DNA from: Neovahlkampfia damariscottae
Lineage: Eukaryota > Heterolobosea > Selenaionea > Neovahlkampfiida > Neovahlkampfiidae
Direction: 5' to 3'
Assembly (NCBI GenBank): GCA_016618085.1
Contig: JABLTG010000046.1
Location: 47,902-111,901 of the forward strand
Length of the DNA stretch: 64,000 nucleotides
Shown: positions 39,663 through 63,181 of the stretch, one piece after another
Numbering within the stretch: the first letter of the stretch is position 1
How the letters are laid out: the number at the start of each line of letters is the position of its first letter
Program-made: the position numbers and the translations under genes
Notes under the pieces: generated by a model
What the model saw: the letters and a program-made list of their open reading frames with translations, nothing else
What the model was told of the DNA's origin: nothing
Databases searched by the model: none

Positions 39663-42600
39663 ATGTCTGAGAGTGAGAAGAAAGAAGAAAAAACTGAAGA
39701 CAAAGCACAACAAAGCACAACAAACACAGGAGAAATTACTCAAGAAAAAGGAGAAGAAAAACCACCACAGCCTGATGATGAATTAGGTGGAGAGGAGAAT
39801 AAAACAACAAAAGCATTCAAAATTATTAAAAAAGTTGGTGGTGGAGCAGAGGGCGCTGTTTATCTTGCTACTCATCTTAAATCACAAAAAACAGTAGCTA
39901 TTAAAAGTATAAATGTTCGTAACCAACAAGAAGCTGAAAAGTTAGAACAAGAAGTATTTTTCACCATTTTTTTAATTTTTTTTCAGCTTGAATTTTTGAT
40001 TTCACTTCGACATGACCATGTAGTTAAACATTATAATTGGTTTTCAGAGAAAGTTAAAACTTTTAGAGGAGAAGAAACAAGATTTTTTGTCAGTATGGAA
40101 TATTGTGAAAATGGAAGTTTGGAAGGTGATTTATTATTAAGAAAAGAAAAAAATCAAACATATGAACCATCTGTAATTCTTTTTCTTTTTTTTAACTTTT
40201 AAAAGGAACTTTTACCATGGATTTCTCAAATTTGTGAATCCTTTACTTATCTTCATGGTGAAGGTATGATACATCGTGATATAAAAACAGAAAATATTTT
40301 GCTAGCAGGTTAGTTATTATTTAGAAAAATCTAATTTTTTTTTTTTTTTTAGAGGATTATAAAATTGCAAAACTATGTGACTTTGGATTTACAAAAAAAA
40401 CTGAAGCACAACTTACAGGTACAGTATTAGGAACAGTTGTTTATATGGCTCCTGAAATAGTTTCAAACAAGAAATATGATTCTGCTGTTGATTTATGGTC
40501 ACTTGGAATTGTAATTTTACAACTTTTATTGATGATACCTCAAAACAAAGTAGTTGATGTTAGAGTTAAATTAATCAAAGATCCTGATTATGTAAAGAAA
40601 ATTTTAGTAGACTTTGATCCAAAAGTATCTGCTATTTGTGTTTCTTGTCTTAAAATAGATCCTGTTGAAAGACCTACAGCTACTGAAATTATTAATTTTA
40701 TAAAAGATCCAAAAGCAAAAGATTTAGAACATCATGATGAAAATGCAATTGATCTAGAAGATCTTTCAAGAGATGGTACAGATCCATTAGTTGTGTTGGG
40801 TAATAAAAAAGCTCAACAATTTTGGTTTGAGGCACAATTTCAAATTGAAGTTGATTGGGAAGAATTTCGTGATCAATATTTAAAATTTACTGAATGGAAA
40901 AGATTAAATAAAGAACAAGAAAGAGGATTTAAAAGATTACTTTGTTATGAAGGTTCAGATGGAAAGAAAAAGACAAATTGTTATAAAGTTGCAAAAGGAT
41001 TAACAAAAGCAGGATTTCCTTTTAGTCAAAATATACTTGCTTCAATTGAAAGATATTCTGATTTATCAAATGATTTACATTCAAAAGATCGTAAGATTAT
41101 TTGATTTTTAAAATGATTTTAGATGATTATACAGCAGAAATGACACCTGAAGATTATGCAAATGCAAGAGCAGATTATTTAAAAATGATAGCTGATTGTG
41201 ATAGAATATTTGTTGACCCAATTTCACAAGAAACTTTATCTGTAGATCAACATTGTGCACCATTAAAAATTGCAACAGATGAAGAATGGACAGAAATGAT
41301 GAATGTAAGTAGTCATGTTGGTTTTAAAAAAATTAACTTTTTTTAGAATAGTTATGATATGGATTTAGAAGATCAAAAAACGTTACAATTACAAAGATTA
41401 GGACTTTCTTCAGTTCAAAAACCACAACATGATAATGCTATTGAATTTTTAGTTACAACAACAACAAAAAGATTTATTATTCTTGGACCTGCTGCAGCGG
41501 GAAAAACAACTCTTATGAAATTATTAATGTCAAAAGCTGGAACAAAAGCAACAAGAGATTTAAATGCATTAATACCAATTTTTGTTCCAATTACAACATT
41601 ATCAATATTTGAAAAAGATATGGATTTTACATTAAAATGTATTAGATCATCATCACAAAATTTATTAAAACAAGCTGTTAAATATCCTGAAAAGATTGAA
41701 CATTTTCTTATACAAACAATTAGAAATAATAAAGCAATGATGTTATTTGATGGATTAGATGAAGCAGCAACAAATGAAGATAAAATTGAAATTCAACATC
41801 AAATACTATCAATACCACAAAAAAATGGAATAATTGTAACATCAAGAATAAGTGGATTTGAAACAAGTGAAGATGGAATGACATTATTCATGGATTATAA
41901 TCTTGCAAAAGTACAACCATTATCATATGATGTTCAAAAACAAATTGCAAAATCAAGAGGAGTTACAGATGAAAAATTTTTTAAATCATTAGAAGGAAAA
42001 TATAATGAATTAGCTAAAACACCACTTTTATTATCTTTAATGATTTCAGAATTTAAAGAAAGTCAATCACTTCCAAATGTTAGAGCAGATTTATATCAAA
42101 GAGCAATTAATACAATGATTACAATATTTTTTCAAAAGAATTTAAATTTTATTAAAGAATCAAATTCAGAAACAAAAAAAGAAGATTTAATGAAATTTTT
42201 AATGAAACTTGCAGTTGTTTTACATGAAAAAAGAACAAGAGATTTTGAAAATGATTTAATTGAAGAGAATTTATCAGATGATGAATTTATGTGGAAAGTT
42301 TGGAAAGATTTAAAAGTATTAGTTGATGATGGAAAGTTTTCATTAGTCATTTTATTAAATGATAGATATAGATTCTCACATTTATCATTTCAAGAATATT
42401 TTGTTGCTCGAGCATGGTCATCAAAAAATGAAGATAGTAGTATTATTTCAGTTGAATCCAATTTTTTTGGTATAAAATCAGTTAAATTTTCAAAAAAAGT
42501 TAAAGAAATGATTATTGATCCATGGTATAGAGAAACTTTTTTATTATGTGCAGGTGCAATGGAACAATCAGATTTTCTTGCATTTGGAAAACATTTATTA

Positions 42601-44589
42601 TCATTATATAAAAGTCAAGGTGGTCTAATTGATAGTATTGTTTATAATATGATTAAAGAAAGACCTGATGAAGAAAAAGCATCATATACAACTCTTATTA
42701 CAAATTTAAATTCTGAAAAAAAATTATTAAGATTAATGGATGGTTTAATTCATGATAGTGATAACTTAAGAGAAATTGCTGTTTCAAGAATTAAAATGTA
42801 TAAAAAAAAAAGTTCAAAATTGAATAAATTTCTTGTAAAACATCTTTCAGATGATAATAATTATGCAGCTGAATCAATGTCACTTTTAACAATAAAAGGT
42901 GATCAAGAAATGATAAAATTATTATTAGAAGAATTATCTTTAAAAAATGAAATATCAAAAAAAAGATGTTGTTTTGTACTTGGTAATATTACAGAATCTG
43001 GTGATCAAATTGTAATTGATAAACTTATTTCAATTTTAGAAGAACAAGAAGATCAAACAAAACAAAAAGAAATTTTAAGAGAAACTATTATTGCACTTGG
43101 TAAAATAACAAAACATGGTGATAAAAATGTTATAAATGTTTTATTAAAACATATTGGTGATTATCATGTTAGAGATGTTGCTGCAACTGCACTTGGTATC
43201 ATTTCAGAAGAAGGTGATGAAGAAATTATTGAAAAATTAACAAAAATTTCAAATGTTTGTGAAGAAGCTTGTATTGCATTAGGTAAAATTGGAATACCAG
43301 GTGATAGACAAATTATTGATACTTTATTAAAAGCATTAGATTCAAATACATTTGATGAAATTAAAATTATTCAAGCTTTATCAAATATTACAAAAGGTGC
43401 AATGGATGATGAATATGCAACTGAAAAATTATTATCTTTTATTGAAAAAGGTAAAAGACGTTTAGCAACAAGAGCTGCTGCTGCATTAGGAGAAGCAGTT
43501 GAAAAATCAGATAAAATTGTAATCAAAACATTATTAGATTTATGTGATAAAAATACAAATAATAGACCTTTTGTTGCTCTTGCTTTGGGATATTGTTCAA
43601 GAAAAGGTTCAAAAAAAGTAGTTGCAAAATTATTAGAGTTATTATCTGATCAAAATGCACATCATTCTGTTAGAGTTTCTGCTGCAGAATCAATAACAAG
43701 AGTTGCAAGATATAATGATCCAAAAGTTATTTCAGTTCTTGTTCAACGTTTATCAGATACAGAAGAAGTTTGTATCGCAGTTTCGAATACATTAATTGAA
43801 CTTGCAGAAAAAGGAAGTCCAGAAGTTATTGATGCTTTTATTGATTTATTGAAACATCCGGATCCAGGTGTTATTCAAAAAGCAGTTGAAGTTTTAGGTA
43901 AAATTGCAAAATCATATCAAGAAGAAGAAATTGAAACTTTAACACATCACGGAAATGATTTAAAATCAAATTCTTCACCAAATGATTCAAAAAATCATTC
44001 ACCTCAAATTACTACATTATCACCAAGAAAAGCAGTTCCAATTATCACAAAAGAAGAAGCATTAAAACTTAAAATACAAAAAGAATCGAATCAAAAAGTC
44101 ATTAAAGCATTAAAAGAATTAATTGCAAGTGATTCTTCAACAGAAGCTATTAAAGCAGTGAGTGTTGAATCTTTAGGTTTAATTGCTCCTCCAAATGATG
44201 AAGATATTATAACTTTAATGTCTGATCTATTGAGCAATTCAAATTCGGTAATCATTAAAAGACAATGTATTCTTGGTCTTGGAAATATAATGAAATCAAA
44301 ACAAAACGAAAAAACTCTTGAATTACTTTATTCTGTTTTACTTTCAGATTCAGAGACAGAAGATGCATGTGTTGAAACATTGAGTAAAATTGGTGATATG
44401 TCAAAAATGATTGAATTATTTAAAAATGTGAAAGAAGCTAGATCAGTTTTATTTACAGTTATTATTCATTCAATTAGACGTCTTCGTGGTGAAGATCCAA
44501 ATTATCAATTATCAAAAGAACATAGTCATTCCCTTCAAAAAGTTAATTGTCTTGAAAGTGTATTTATTTTAGTAGAACATGCAAGTTAA
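39663..44589 (+). CDS. STAND protein: protein kinase - NACHT ATPase - HEAT repeats
   Basis: Six exons (39663-39953, 39987-40172, 40206-40308, 40353-41090, 41123-41304, 41347-44589) encode 1580 residues. Residues 50-290 form a Ser/Thr kinase with GGGAEGAVY glycine loop, VAIKS Lys, HRDIKTEN (catalytic Asp near 184), CDFG and YMAPE. All catalytic residues are present. A linker of about 200 residues follows, with an EF-hand-like block (FWFEAQFQIEVDWEEF). The NACHT module has P-loop GPAAAGKTTL (near 547), Walker B MMLFDGLDEAAT and sensor VTSR. Residues from about 970 on are HEAT repeats (units such as IIALGKITKHGDKNVINVLL). NACHT STAND proteins are signal switches that oligomerise on ligand sensing. 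Here the output would be a kinase and the HEAT array the sensor. The ligand is unknown. Confidence 0.93.
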
Positions 44590-56616: not shown

Positions 56617-58262
56617 TTAAAAATAATTCCAAAATTCATCTGGTTCTTCATTTTCATTTATAATTTTCATAATATAAAATTCATTCTTATTTTTTTCTTC
56701 TAAGAATTGTTTACCTAATTTCAATAAATCATCTTCATATTCAGATAATTCTCCTTTCCAAATATAAATTAAATTTAATTCATCAATTAATAAAATAAAT
56801 ACTCCATCTGAATCTAAATCATCTTTATCAAAAATACCATAATCATCAAAATAATCATCATCAAAATTAAATAATTTAGCTTTGATTTTTGGTATTTTTA
56901 TTTCTTCTTCTTTTTCTTGTTTTTTAAATTTTTCATAATCTTTTGATTTTTCTAAAAATATTAATTCTGGATAAATATCATTATTTGTATTTGATGAAAA
57001 ATTAATTTTTAATTCCAATAAAGATGATTGAAATTCTTTTGTTTCAAATGATTCATTGATAATTTCGAATTCAAATTCACACATTCCAAGACCATGTTGA
57101 ATAGTTTTTATAAAATATTTTGATTCTTCATCAATAAATGTATATTCATTTGATTTCTTTCCTTTCCATAAAAATATCTTTAAATTTTCATTAATCAAAA
57201 TAAAATTTGTTCTTGAATCTAAAATTGAACTTTCACATAATAGAGGTCCAACTTGAAAATGTGATCTTCCATAATATGAATTTAAAGGTGATATTCTAAA
57301 TAAAATACTTCCTCTTTTTTTTAAATAATCTTCCCATTTCATTAATTGAACTAAAAAACCAGGATTTGGTGAACTAACTGGTCTAATAGTTTTTAAATTT
57401 TCATATAACTTTTTAAATCCAATTTTTTCTTTCCAAATTAAATAAGATAAAACAAATGTTGAACTTCTAGATATTCCTTGAACACAATGTACATAAACTT
57501 TCCCTCCATTTGAAATTGCTTGTTCAATGAAATAAACAGCTTCAAAAAATAGACCAATCATTCCTTGATTTCCTCCATCATATAAATTCATGCTTTTATA
57601 TTTGAAATTATCTTTAAAATATTCTTCACATGTTATTTTTGCACAATTTAAAACACTTTTTTTTTTTTTAATTTTTCTTTTTCTTACTGTGTTATTCCAT
57701 TTGATAATAATGTTTCTTTATCTCTAGCTATCATATCTGAACCTAAAAATAAATTATCTCTAACTTTTGAACATATTTTTAAATATTTTCTTATCAGTGC
57801 TGCATCTGTACATTTTACTAATTCTTCTTCTTCTTCTTCAATTGAATCTTCAAATTCAATATGATTCTCTTCCATTATGTCAAGACGAGAAAGTGAATCC
57901 ATTACTTTATGTATTCCTATTAATTTTCTATCACTTCTTGGCGTTCTAGGTGGAGTTGAGTTTGGAGTTTTTGGTGTTCTTCTCGGACTATCAACAGTTC
58001 TTCTTTTGAGTAGATGAAACTTTAAACCAGAAAAGGAAGGTGAATCAGATCTAGGTGTTCCTGGTAATGAATTTGATGGTGAGTCAATTTCTTGAGGCGT
58101 CCTTGGTGTTCTAGGTGTTTTTCTTCTTGGACTATTTTCAAAAGATGATTTTCTTTTGACTGATGTTATTTTACATGATTCTGGTGAAAATGTTGGAGCT
58201 CTGAGCTTTGGTATCAATAATTTATCAGAATTAATGTTCAACTTGAATTTAGGTGATTCCAT
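56617..58262 (-). CDS. dual-specificity phosphatase with gelsolin-like domains (MKP1-type)
   Basis: Two exons (58262-57688, 57655-56617) give 537 residues. Residues 1-120 are disordered and basic with many S/T-P sites (PRRKTPRTPRTP, NSTPPRTPRS). The phosphatase domain (about 160-320) starts KVRDNLFLGSDMIARD and has the active-site loop HCVQGISRSS (H-C-x5-R-S). Two gelsolin/villin-like segments follow, with FLWKGKKS and IYIWKGELSEYEDD. A DSP joined to gelsolin repeats is the arrangement of plant MAP kinase phosphatase MKP1. Expected role: dephosphorylation of MAP kinases, perhaps actin-linked. The splice restores the conserved NGITHVLNCA. Confidence 0.9.
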
Positions 58263-58542: not shown

Positions 58543-60188
58543 ATGTTTTCCAGTGAACTAACTCAACTACTTCAAGCAAAAAATTTAAAAACCATAACAC
58601 TTCATCGTAAGAAATAACAAAAATTGTTAAGTGTTCAGAAACACCAAATAGAGGAGAATGGAAATATATTAGAGATATTATAAACAAAAATCCAGTTACC
58701 TATTTAAATCTCGGTTGTAAACTGAAAATAAAAAACTAAAAAGAAAAAGATCTTGAAATTGATTCAGATGGATGCTCAAACTTATCTTTTATTTTAAAAT
58801 CAAATCAATCTATTCAAAATTTAAATTTAGAAAGTTTATTCCGAAAAAAAAACATTAATTTTAAAAAGTGAATGAAATTGAAGACAGAGGATGTAAATAT
58901 ATATGTGAATCTTTAAAAAATGATAACATTTTAAAAATACTGAATCTATCATGTAATATCAATTCATTTAATTTCAATTAGCTTGTGGGATTGAATATAA
59001 AGGATTTGAATATATTTCATCAATGCTAATTCAAAATAAAACTATTGATACACTAAATATTGGTCGTAAATAATTTTAATTTCATTTAAAAAGAATATAG
59101 ATAATTCAATTTCATTAAATAGTTGTAAAATGATTTGTTCAGCACTCTTAAAGAATAATACACTAAAAACATTAGATCTCTCTTGTAAAATTAATATTTC
59201 ATAACATTTTTATAATAGGGTGTTCAATTAATTCATTTGGATGTTTGGTATTATGTCTAACATTAACAAAACAAAAATCATTAAAAATATTGAACCTATC
59301 AAGTAAATCAATTCATTGAATAATAAATATAGAAAATAACTTTACTATTGATTCATTTGATCATTTATCAACTATGTTATCATACAATGATACTTTGGTT
59401 GAATTATGTTTAGCAAGTAAATATTAACTTATTTCATAACCTACTTAAAAATAAGATAATAATATAAACTTTGAAAAATGTGAAAGATTAGTGAATAATT
59501 TGAAGAAAAATAAAGGAATAACTAAATTAGATCTTTCATGTAATTCATTTTATATTTTAAATCTCAAAAAGATAATTTATTAAATGCTGAATGTTGTAAA
59601 TGTATATTTAAACAATTAATAGAGAATAAAACAATCAAACATTTAAATTTAGAAGGTAACACTTTCTTTTTCTAAAATTGAAGAAAATTTCATTCAAAAT
59701 GAAGGATGTGAATATATATCAAAATATATTTCAAGTCAAAAATCATTAACTTCTTTGAATCTTAAAAGTAATTCATTATTTGTATTTAATGATAAAAATA
59801 GAAAATGAAATTAGTGATTATGGTATTAAAGTATTATGTGAAGAATTGAAATTCAATAATACTTTGAATACATTAATATTGAGATGTTTTTGATGTTTTA
59901 TATTTTTCTTATTCTCTTTTTAGATAATGATATTCAAAACGAGGGATGCACACATATTTGTGAATTATTGAGATTTAATTTAACATTGAAATATATAAAT
60001 ATAAAGAGTAACTTTTAAGAAATATATTCATTGCTTTTACTAAAGAGAATTTAATATCAATTGATAAAGAATTGATATTTCTTCGAATATTGAAAGAGAA
60101 TTCAAATTATTTATTGAAAATTGATCATTTTCCAATGATTAAAAAAATATTTAAAAAGCTGAATGATATTAATTTTAAATCAAAATAA
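58543..60188 (+). CDS. leucine-rich repeat protein (RI type), one repeat per 84-nt exon
   Basis: Fourteen exons give 402 residues. Exons 3-13 are each exactly 84 nt (58750-58833, 58869-58952, 58982-59065, 59101-59184, 59219-59302, 59333-59416, 59456-59539, 59572-59655, 59684-59767, 59802-59885, 59924-60007). Exon 1 is 58543-58606, exon 2 58639-58716, exon 14 60046-60188. All introns are phase 1. Each 84-nt exon encodes one 28-residue ribonuclease-inhibitor-type repeat, with a pattern like INFEKCERLVNNLKKNKGI then TKLDLS. The intron always falls just after the LxLS. The protein is a short solenoid with no other domain, so a binding role is likely. ATTGGACA sits 6 nt before the ATG. Without splicing the region has no long frame, so it is easily missed. 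Confidence 0.88.

Positions 60189-62260: not shown

Positions 62261-63181
<921 letters not shown>

What the first reader, a model, noticed from the sequence alone, without database searches (positions are those of the whole stretch)
58543..60188. LRR gene built from eleven identical-length 84-nt exons, one repeat each
Exons 3-13 are each exactly 84 nt, all bounded by phase-1 introns of 28-39 nt, and each encodes one 28-residue RI-type LRR. This is a strict one-exon-one-repeat module, as if the gene grew by duplication of an exon-plus-intron unit. Vertebrate RI/NLR genes use related but mostly two-repeat exons. The arrangement would let repeats be added, lost or skipped without frame damage, so it could generate variable recognition surfaces.
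Basis: partly seen in the sequence, partly recalled or inferred. Interest (0 to 1): 0.85.

Follow-up and report, generated by a model that had tools for sequence, protein, structure and literature searches.

The report
One-repeat-per-exon LRR gene, family-wide
A small gene of an unnamed AT-rich eukaryote is cut by tiny introns so that each exon encodes exactly one leucine-rich repeat, and the same cut site recurs in nearly a third of the related gene loci examined, which points to an old duplicated exon-plus-intron building block rather than to something that is varying today.

Summary
The locus reads as a 14-exon gene (1209-nt CDS, 402 aa). Exons 3-13 are each exactly 84 nt; all 13 introns are GT-AG, phase 1 and 28-39 nt long. 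The product is an RNase-inhibitor-type LRR solenoid. Shuffles of the locus give a chain of at most 2 such exons; the locus gives 11.

New here: the pattern belongs to a gene family. In 52 RI-LRR loci of the host assembly, 81 of 107 called introns lie at one site, phase 1 in the codon just before N of LxxLxLxxN; with random artificial introns it was 3 of 305. 16 of 52 loci have at least one. Of 62 exons between two such introns, 51 are exact multiples of 84. No AG target marks the site, so descent from one exon+intron unit with later intron loss is the best reading.

'Variable recognition surfaces' are not supported: repeats are old (at most 58% nt identity here), every single-intron retention gives an early stop, and 16 of 78 skip joins create a stop. 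Precedents exist in human NOD/NLRC, Tetrahymena and brown-algal genes; those whose phase I saw or deduced are phase 2, which suggests an independent origin.

The parts
58543..60188 (+). whole gene, 14 exons, 402-aa RI-type LRR protein
58543..58606 (+). exon 1 (64 nt), N-terminal partial repeat
58607..58638 (+). intron 1, 32 nt, phase 1
58639..58716 (+). exon 2 (78 nt; 75 if the upstream GT is used), one 26-aa repeat
58717..58749 (+). intron 2, 33 nt, phase 1
58750..58833 (+). exon 3, 84 nt, one LRR
58834..58868 (+). intron 3, 35 nt, phase 1 (donor GTTTAT)
58869..58952 (+). exon 4, 84 nt, one LRR
58953..58981 (+). intron 4, 29 nt, phase 1
58982..59065 (+). exon 5, 84 nt, one LRR
59066..59100 (+). 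intron 5, 35 nt, phase 1
59101..59184 (+). exon 6, 84 nt, one LRR
59185..59218 (+). intron 6, 34 nt, phase 1
59219..59302 (+). exon 7, 84 nt, one LRR
59303..59332 (+). intron 7, 30 nt, phase 1
59333..59416 (+). exon 8, 84 nt, one LRR
59417..59455 (+). intron 8, 39 nt, phase 1
59456..59539 (+). exon 9, 84 nt, one LRR
59540..59571 (+). intron 9, 32 nt, phase 1
59572..59655 (+). exon 10, 84 nt, one LRR
59656..59683 (+). intron 10, 28 nt, phase 1
59684..59767 (+). exon 11, 84 nt, one LRR
59768..59801 (+). intron 11, 34 nt, phase 1
59802..59885 (+). exon 12, 84 nt, one LRR
59886..59923 (+). intron 12, 38 nt, phase 1 (donor GTTTTT)
59924..60007 (+). exon 13, 84 nt, one LRR
60008..60045 (+). intron 13, 38 nt, phase 1
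60046..60188 (+). exon 14 (143 nt), last partial repeat, C-terminal tail and stop

Best explanation
The locus is an intact spliced gene for a small protein made almost only of RI-type leucine-rich repeats, most likely a cytosolic horseshoe that binds one or a few partner proteins. Its regular exons are inherited. An ancestral 28-residue repeat carried an intron after base 1 of the codon just before N in LxxLxLxxN; that 84-nt exon plus intron was copied in tandem and between genes to found part of the RI-LRR family of this genome, and introns were later lost in some members. The focal gene has kept every intron. Shown: the reading structure, the register, the family-wide site. Inferred: splicing, order of gain and loss, cytosolic place and binding role. 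The array shows no sign of turnover now.
For: Only LRR models in Pfam at E<=0.01 (LRR_6 2.7e-23, LRR_1); the six best solved relatives are ribonuclease inhibitors, best 1.4e-30. 81 of 107 introns called in 52 RI-LRR loci lie at one of 84 possible places (70 of 96 without the focal gene; 80 of 97 among introns of 50 nt or less). Method control: artificial introns (letters of real paralog introns) put at random places in 9 intronless paralogs, 3 rounds each; of 305 that fell inside the called spans 281 were recovered exactly, and 3 of the 305 introns called were at the site. 51 of 62 exons between two site introns are exact multiples of 84 (41 x 84, 7 x 168, 2 x 252, 1 x 336) and 62 of 62 are multiples of 3, as expected of exact intron absence in a register fixed by the unit. 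AG before the site: 14 of 81 with intron, 70 of 408 without, Fisher p = 1: no target signature for repeated insertion. Repeats are slightly more alike within than between genes at variable positions (0.145 against 0.133; 0 of 2000 label permutations as high, 34 loci).
Against: Introns of the focal gene are no more alike than introns of other genes (mean longest shared word 6.42; 429 of 500 random sets of 13 reach it), so shared descent is not seen in the intron letters; one word, TTCAT, is in 8 of 13 focal and 9 of 69 other introns (p 5e-4, but chosen after looking). Two exon-flank positions differ between junctions with and without intron (p 0.0017 at +1, 0.034 at -3, uncorrected). 36 of 52 loci have no site intron, so that the ancestor had it is not proven. 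11 of 62 exons between site introns are not multiples of 84. No RNA, no second species, organism unnamed.
Confidence: 0.72

Rival explanations
1. Parallel intron gain: an intronless repeat array received introns one after another at the same place in each repeat, because something in the repeat's DNA or chromatin attracts insertion.
For: 36 of 52 RI-LRR loci lack the site intron and many matches lie in long open frames; intron letters show no clear common ancestry; two flank positions differ between filled and empty junctions.
Against: No AG or AG-G target signature (14 of 81 against 70 of 408; 6 of 81 against 29 of 408); 80 of 97 introns of 50 nt or less on 1 of 84 places.
Confidence: 0.12
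2. An active diversity generator: repeats are added, lost or skipped now, to vary a recognition surface.
For: Exons 2-13 are symmetric 1-1 and multiples of 3; 9 of 12 single-exon skips stay open. In brown-algal ROCO genes LRR exons are reported to be shuffled and alternatively spliced (PMC11378527, passages).
Against: No unit pair above 58% nt identity in this gene or above 69% among 217 repeats of 34 loci; best-scoring paralog match 32% identical; 16 of 78 skip joins give a stop; 13 of 13 single-intron retentions give an early stop; tiny introns, and exon skipping reported rarer outside animals (PMC6335736, passages).
Confidence: 0.06
3. A decaying pseudogene or unspliced relic.
For: No transcript evidence; two donors are GTTT rather than GTA (introns 3 and 12) and the end of exon 2 is ambiguous.
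Against: Fourteen exons open in one frame with coding-like codon usage only in that frame; splice ends like those of other introns called in the window; 10 of 82 listed site introns begin GTTT.
Confidence: 0.05

Closest known systems
Human NOD/NLRC genes (RI-type LRR exons)
   Same: RI-type repeats of 28 aa, in most of these genes one repeat per exon, exon border reported at one exact position within the beta-sheet (PMC6642158, section 6).
   Different: Those carry a NACHT domain (recalled); none in the focal protein. NOD2 intron 8 follows c.2798 (PMC8432186, passages), i.e. phase 2 by arithmetic for that one intron, against phase 1 here. Introns here are 28-39 nt.
Tetrahymena 90-bp-exon LRR genes
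   Same: Protist LRR genes with long arrays of equal exons and one intron phase, explained by copying of an exon-intron unit (PMC6564038: abstract, outline, passages, sections 23 and 25).
   Different: 90 bp and phase 2; thousands of genes; young units alike at nucleotide level, with introns of about 257 bp in T. thermophila. Here 84 nt, phase 1, 16 of 52 loci, old units, tiny introns.
Brown-algal LRR-ROCO genes
   Same: Individual LRRs each in a separate exon of uniform phase (PMC11378527, passages).
   Different: 72 bp, phase 2, 23-aa repeats, ROC-COR GTPase; shuffled and alternatively spliced according to that paper.
Vertebrate RNase inhibitor (RNH1) and NLRP genes
   Same: RI-type repeats; RNase inhibitors are the best solved-structure match.
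   Different: NLRP3 LRR exons are 171 bp with two repeats; the same for RNH1 is recalled, not seen in a call.

Membership tests
RI-type LRR protein | tandem repeats of about 28 aa with LxxLxLxxN and a helical second half (definition recalled) | tested here: met
   11 ungapped 28-aa repeats, LRR_6 2.7e-23, RNase inhibitors first in the PDB search
one-repeat-per-exon LRR array (general kind) | successive exons of one length, same intron phase on both sides, one repeat each | tested here: met
one-repeat-per-exon LRR array (general kind) | splicing seen in RNA | not testable with these tools
   no RNA data held
NOD/NLRC receptors | NACHT domain joined to the LRRs (recalled) | tested here: not met
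   Pfam finds only LRR models in the focal protein
NOD/NLRC receptors | one 28-aa LRR per exon (84 nt) | tested here: met
   definition from PMC6642158
NOD/NLRC receptors | phase 2 introns (deduced for NOD2 intron 8 only) | tested here: not met
   phase 1 here; NOD2 from PMC8432186 passages
Tetrahymena 90-bp exon LRR genes | exactly 90-bp exons | tested here: not met
   84 nt
Tetrahymena 90-bp exon LRR genes | phase 2 introns | tested here: not met
   phase 1
Tetrahymena 90-bp exon LRR genes | intragenic repeat units detectable at nucleotide level (group II/III) | tested here: not met
   highest identity 58% in the focal gene, 69% in 217 repeats of 34 loci
Brown-algal LRR-ROCO | ROC-COR domains and 72-bp phase-2 exons | tested here: not met
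   (only LRR models)

The most novel reading that the evidence does not exclude
A further, independent invention of the modular LRR gene in an unplaced eukaryote lineage: one founding 84-nt exon plus tiny phase-1 intron gave rise to a dispersed family, whose members now form a graded series from all introns kept (focal gene) to none, a natural record of how exon-modular repeat genes are built and then lose their modularity.
Probability: 0.5. Interest if true: 0.55.

Novelty: new member of a known kind. Interest (0 to 1): 0.42.

Why it matters
LRR exon arrays in vertebrates, Tetrahymena and brown algae have been read as raw material for new recognition specificities or isoforms. A case with a different phase, tiny introns and no recent turnover shows that the architecture can be an old relic and does not by itself mean an active generator of diversity. 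The mosaic of filled and empty sites in 16 loci would let intron loss against gain be tested with one related genome.

Tried and rejected
Intron letters as proof of unit duplication: shared-word tests within 11 genes were mostly at shuffle level. For the focal gene, 24 of 500 shuffles reached the observed number of pairs sharing 9 or more letters, but random sets of 13 introns from other genes did so in 313 of 500. In L047 the longest shared word (13) was reached by 8 of 500 shuffles, in L041 the mean by 36 of 500; with 11 genes and three measures each this was not taken as proof. The TTCAT excess was picked after looking.

Selection on intron retention: of 80 site introns of 50 nt or less, 20 are multiples of 3 and 5 could be retained without a stop (shuffle mean 7.6; 82 of 500 shuffles at or below 5): no significant depletion.

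Organism: not identified; no eukaryote collection is held. ARAGORN found no tRNA in the window. Domain matches (mitochondrial carrier, Vps53, DSP with gelsolin) and introns say only that it is a eukaryote.

NLR link: NACHT is sparse in the assembly (6 matches at E<=0.01, 3 over the cut-off; the search is not specific, it rings in 14 of 14 control genomes and is over the cut-off in 3). The one in the window is joined to HEAT repeats, not LRRs. No link to the focal gene was found.

Literature: searches listed no phase-1 84-nt LRR exon array in a protist that I could recognise from titles, abstracts and the passages I opened; that is a limit of those searches, not proof of absence. One search served only for the NOD2 exon border. 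Zambounis 2012 and Street 2006 were seen only as cited in the papers opened.

Limits of the family count: loci come from a protein search at E<=0.01 (103 of 106 candidates scored) plus one further LRR_6 place. Genes split into 28-aa exons match weakly, so array genes are probably undercounted. Only the best array per locus and strand was scored; L037 (C240) and L047 (C290) each hold a second cluster that was not scored apart. Stretches were short for many loci (3-4 kb), so arrays may be cut. Some called introns are doubtful (one site call of 63 nt in L041; six off-site calls in L067; other long off-site calls).

Full report
What is there. The stretch 58543-60188 (+) reads as a gene of 14 exons. 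Exon 1 is 64 nt, exon 2 is 78 nt (or 75), exons 3-13 are 84 nt each and exon 14 is 143 nt with the stop. The 13 introns are 28-39 nt, GT-AG, phase 1. The CDS is 1209 nt and the protein 402 aa. Pfam gives LRR_6 (2.7e-23) and weakly LRR_1. The six best solved relatives are ribonuclease inhibitors. The eleven full repeats have the consensus xNxIxxxGCxxIxxxLxxNxTLxxLNLx, which is the RI type (recalled).

Is it more than chance? Openness and GT-AG alone leave 328 chains, five of them with eleven 84-nt exons. I therefore wrote a cyclic 28-position LRR profile that may insert GT-AG introns of 20-90 nt at any place and phase. Trained on the focal repeats it finds the same model, apart from the ill-fitting first two exons. 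Remade from 96 repeats of other loci, which had been collected with the first profile, it still calls introns 2-12 and the ten 84-nt exons between them. Shuffled versions of the locus reach a chain of two at most in 200 trials; the locus reaches 12, of which 11 are exons 3-13. Codon usage is coding-like only in the spliced frame (+58 against -84 and -76 bits). Introns of 25-45 nt with the same ends occur elsewhere in the window: 17 GT-AG calls against 3, 4 and 3 with mock ends; phases 9, 7 and 1 for phase 0, 1 and 2. So the splice signals are ordinary and phase 1 is not the rule for the introns called there.

The family. The window lies in an assembly of 20.4 Mb and 307 contigs. A protein search gave 93 matches. 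Those outside the focal gene, with one more place, come to 51 places; with the focal gene 52 loci were scored. 16 of 52 have at least one intron at exactly the focal site, 14 have three or more, 24 have no called intron at all. Of 107 introns called, 81 lie at the site; without the focal gene 70 of 96. The site is after base 1 of the codon before N in LxxLxLxxN. Between two site introns, 51 of 62 exons are exact multiples of 84 (41 of them 84 nt, 31 of these outside the focal gene) and all 62 are multiples of 3. Twenty of the loci were fetched first mostly because their frames looked broken, which favours genes with introns but not the place of the introns; 18 others were added later so that all 51 places were covered, and none of these 18 has a site intron. 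A control with random artificial introns in 9 intronless paralogs recovered 281 of 305 exactly and called 3 of 305 at the site, so the method does not make the site.

How it arose. Two readings compete. Either an exon+intron unit was copied, or introns entered the same place again and again. The bases around the site show no AG target (14 of 81 with, 70 of 408 without intron, p = 1), though two flank positions differ mildly. About 80 hits on one of 84 places without a target are hard to explain by insertion, so unit descent with later loss is preferred. Against it, intron letters carry no clear kinship. That is not surprising for AT-rich introns of about 30 nt whose exons are only about 50% identical, but it means the point rests on position alone.

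Is it varying now? I find no sign. The most similar pair among 217 full-length repeats of 34 loci is 69% identical in DNA, in the focal gene 58%. The best-scoring paralog match of the protein is 32% identical. All 13 single-intron retentions give an early stop, and 9 of 12 single-exon skips stay open. 16 of 78 possible skip joins give a stop at the split codon. Outside animals exon skipping is reported to be rarer, and to go with longer flanking introns (PMC6335736, passages). A static binding protein is the better guess; its partner is unknown.

What is known. PMC6642158 (section 6 read) reports that NLRP genes have two-repeat exons (171 bp in NLRP3) but most NOD and NLRC genes have one 28-aa LRR per exon, with borders at one exact position. 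[quoted passage not shown] PMC11378527 (passages) describes brown-algal LRR-ROCO genes with 72-bp phase-2 exons and says that gonadotrophin-receptor introns are phase 2 too. NOD2 intron 8 after c.2798 (PMC8432186, passages) is phase 2 by arithmetic. PMC3995336 (passages) notes that exons frequently span multiples of whole repeat units. The present case shares the kind and differs in phase, intron size and apparent age. It is best filed as a new, probably independent member of a known kind.

Noticed in passing
41359-44589 (+): Long frame of 1076 aa with NACHT (4.7e-8) and HEAT repeats, an NLR-like build without LRRs; best NACHT match of the assembly.
   Followed up: partly
L038 (G000:C198:54500-60500), 903-2396: Protein kinase domain (3.1e-35) with a Sel1 repeat just upstream of an LRR array with one site intron; whether one gene is not tested.
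   Followed up: partly
L040 (G000:C194:3500-10500): By eye, a B-box-like zinc-binding stretch before an LRR array in which site introns occur in only some repeats; no domain search made.
   Followed up: no
L014 655-1950 and L030 2670-3782 (-): PH domain (1.4e-8 and 1.3e-6) followed by RI-type LRRs in one open frame.
   Followed up: partly
62261-63043 (-): Polyubiquitin frame with three head-to-tail ubiquitin units (seen).
   Followed up: no
56617-57591 (-): Dual-specificity phosphatase with gelsolin repeat, upstream of the LRR gene on the other strand.
   Followed up: no
focal introns, 58607-60045: TTCAT occurs in 8 of 13 focal introns and 9 of 69 introns of other LRR genes; unexplained, found after looking.
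   Followed up: partly
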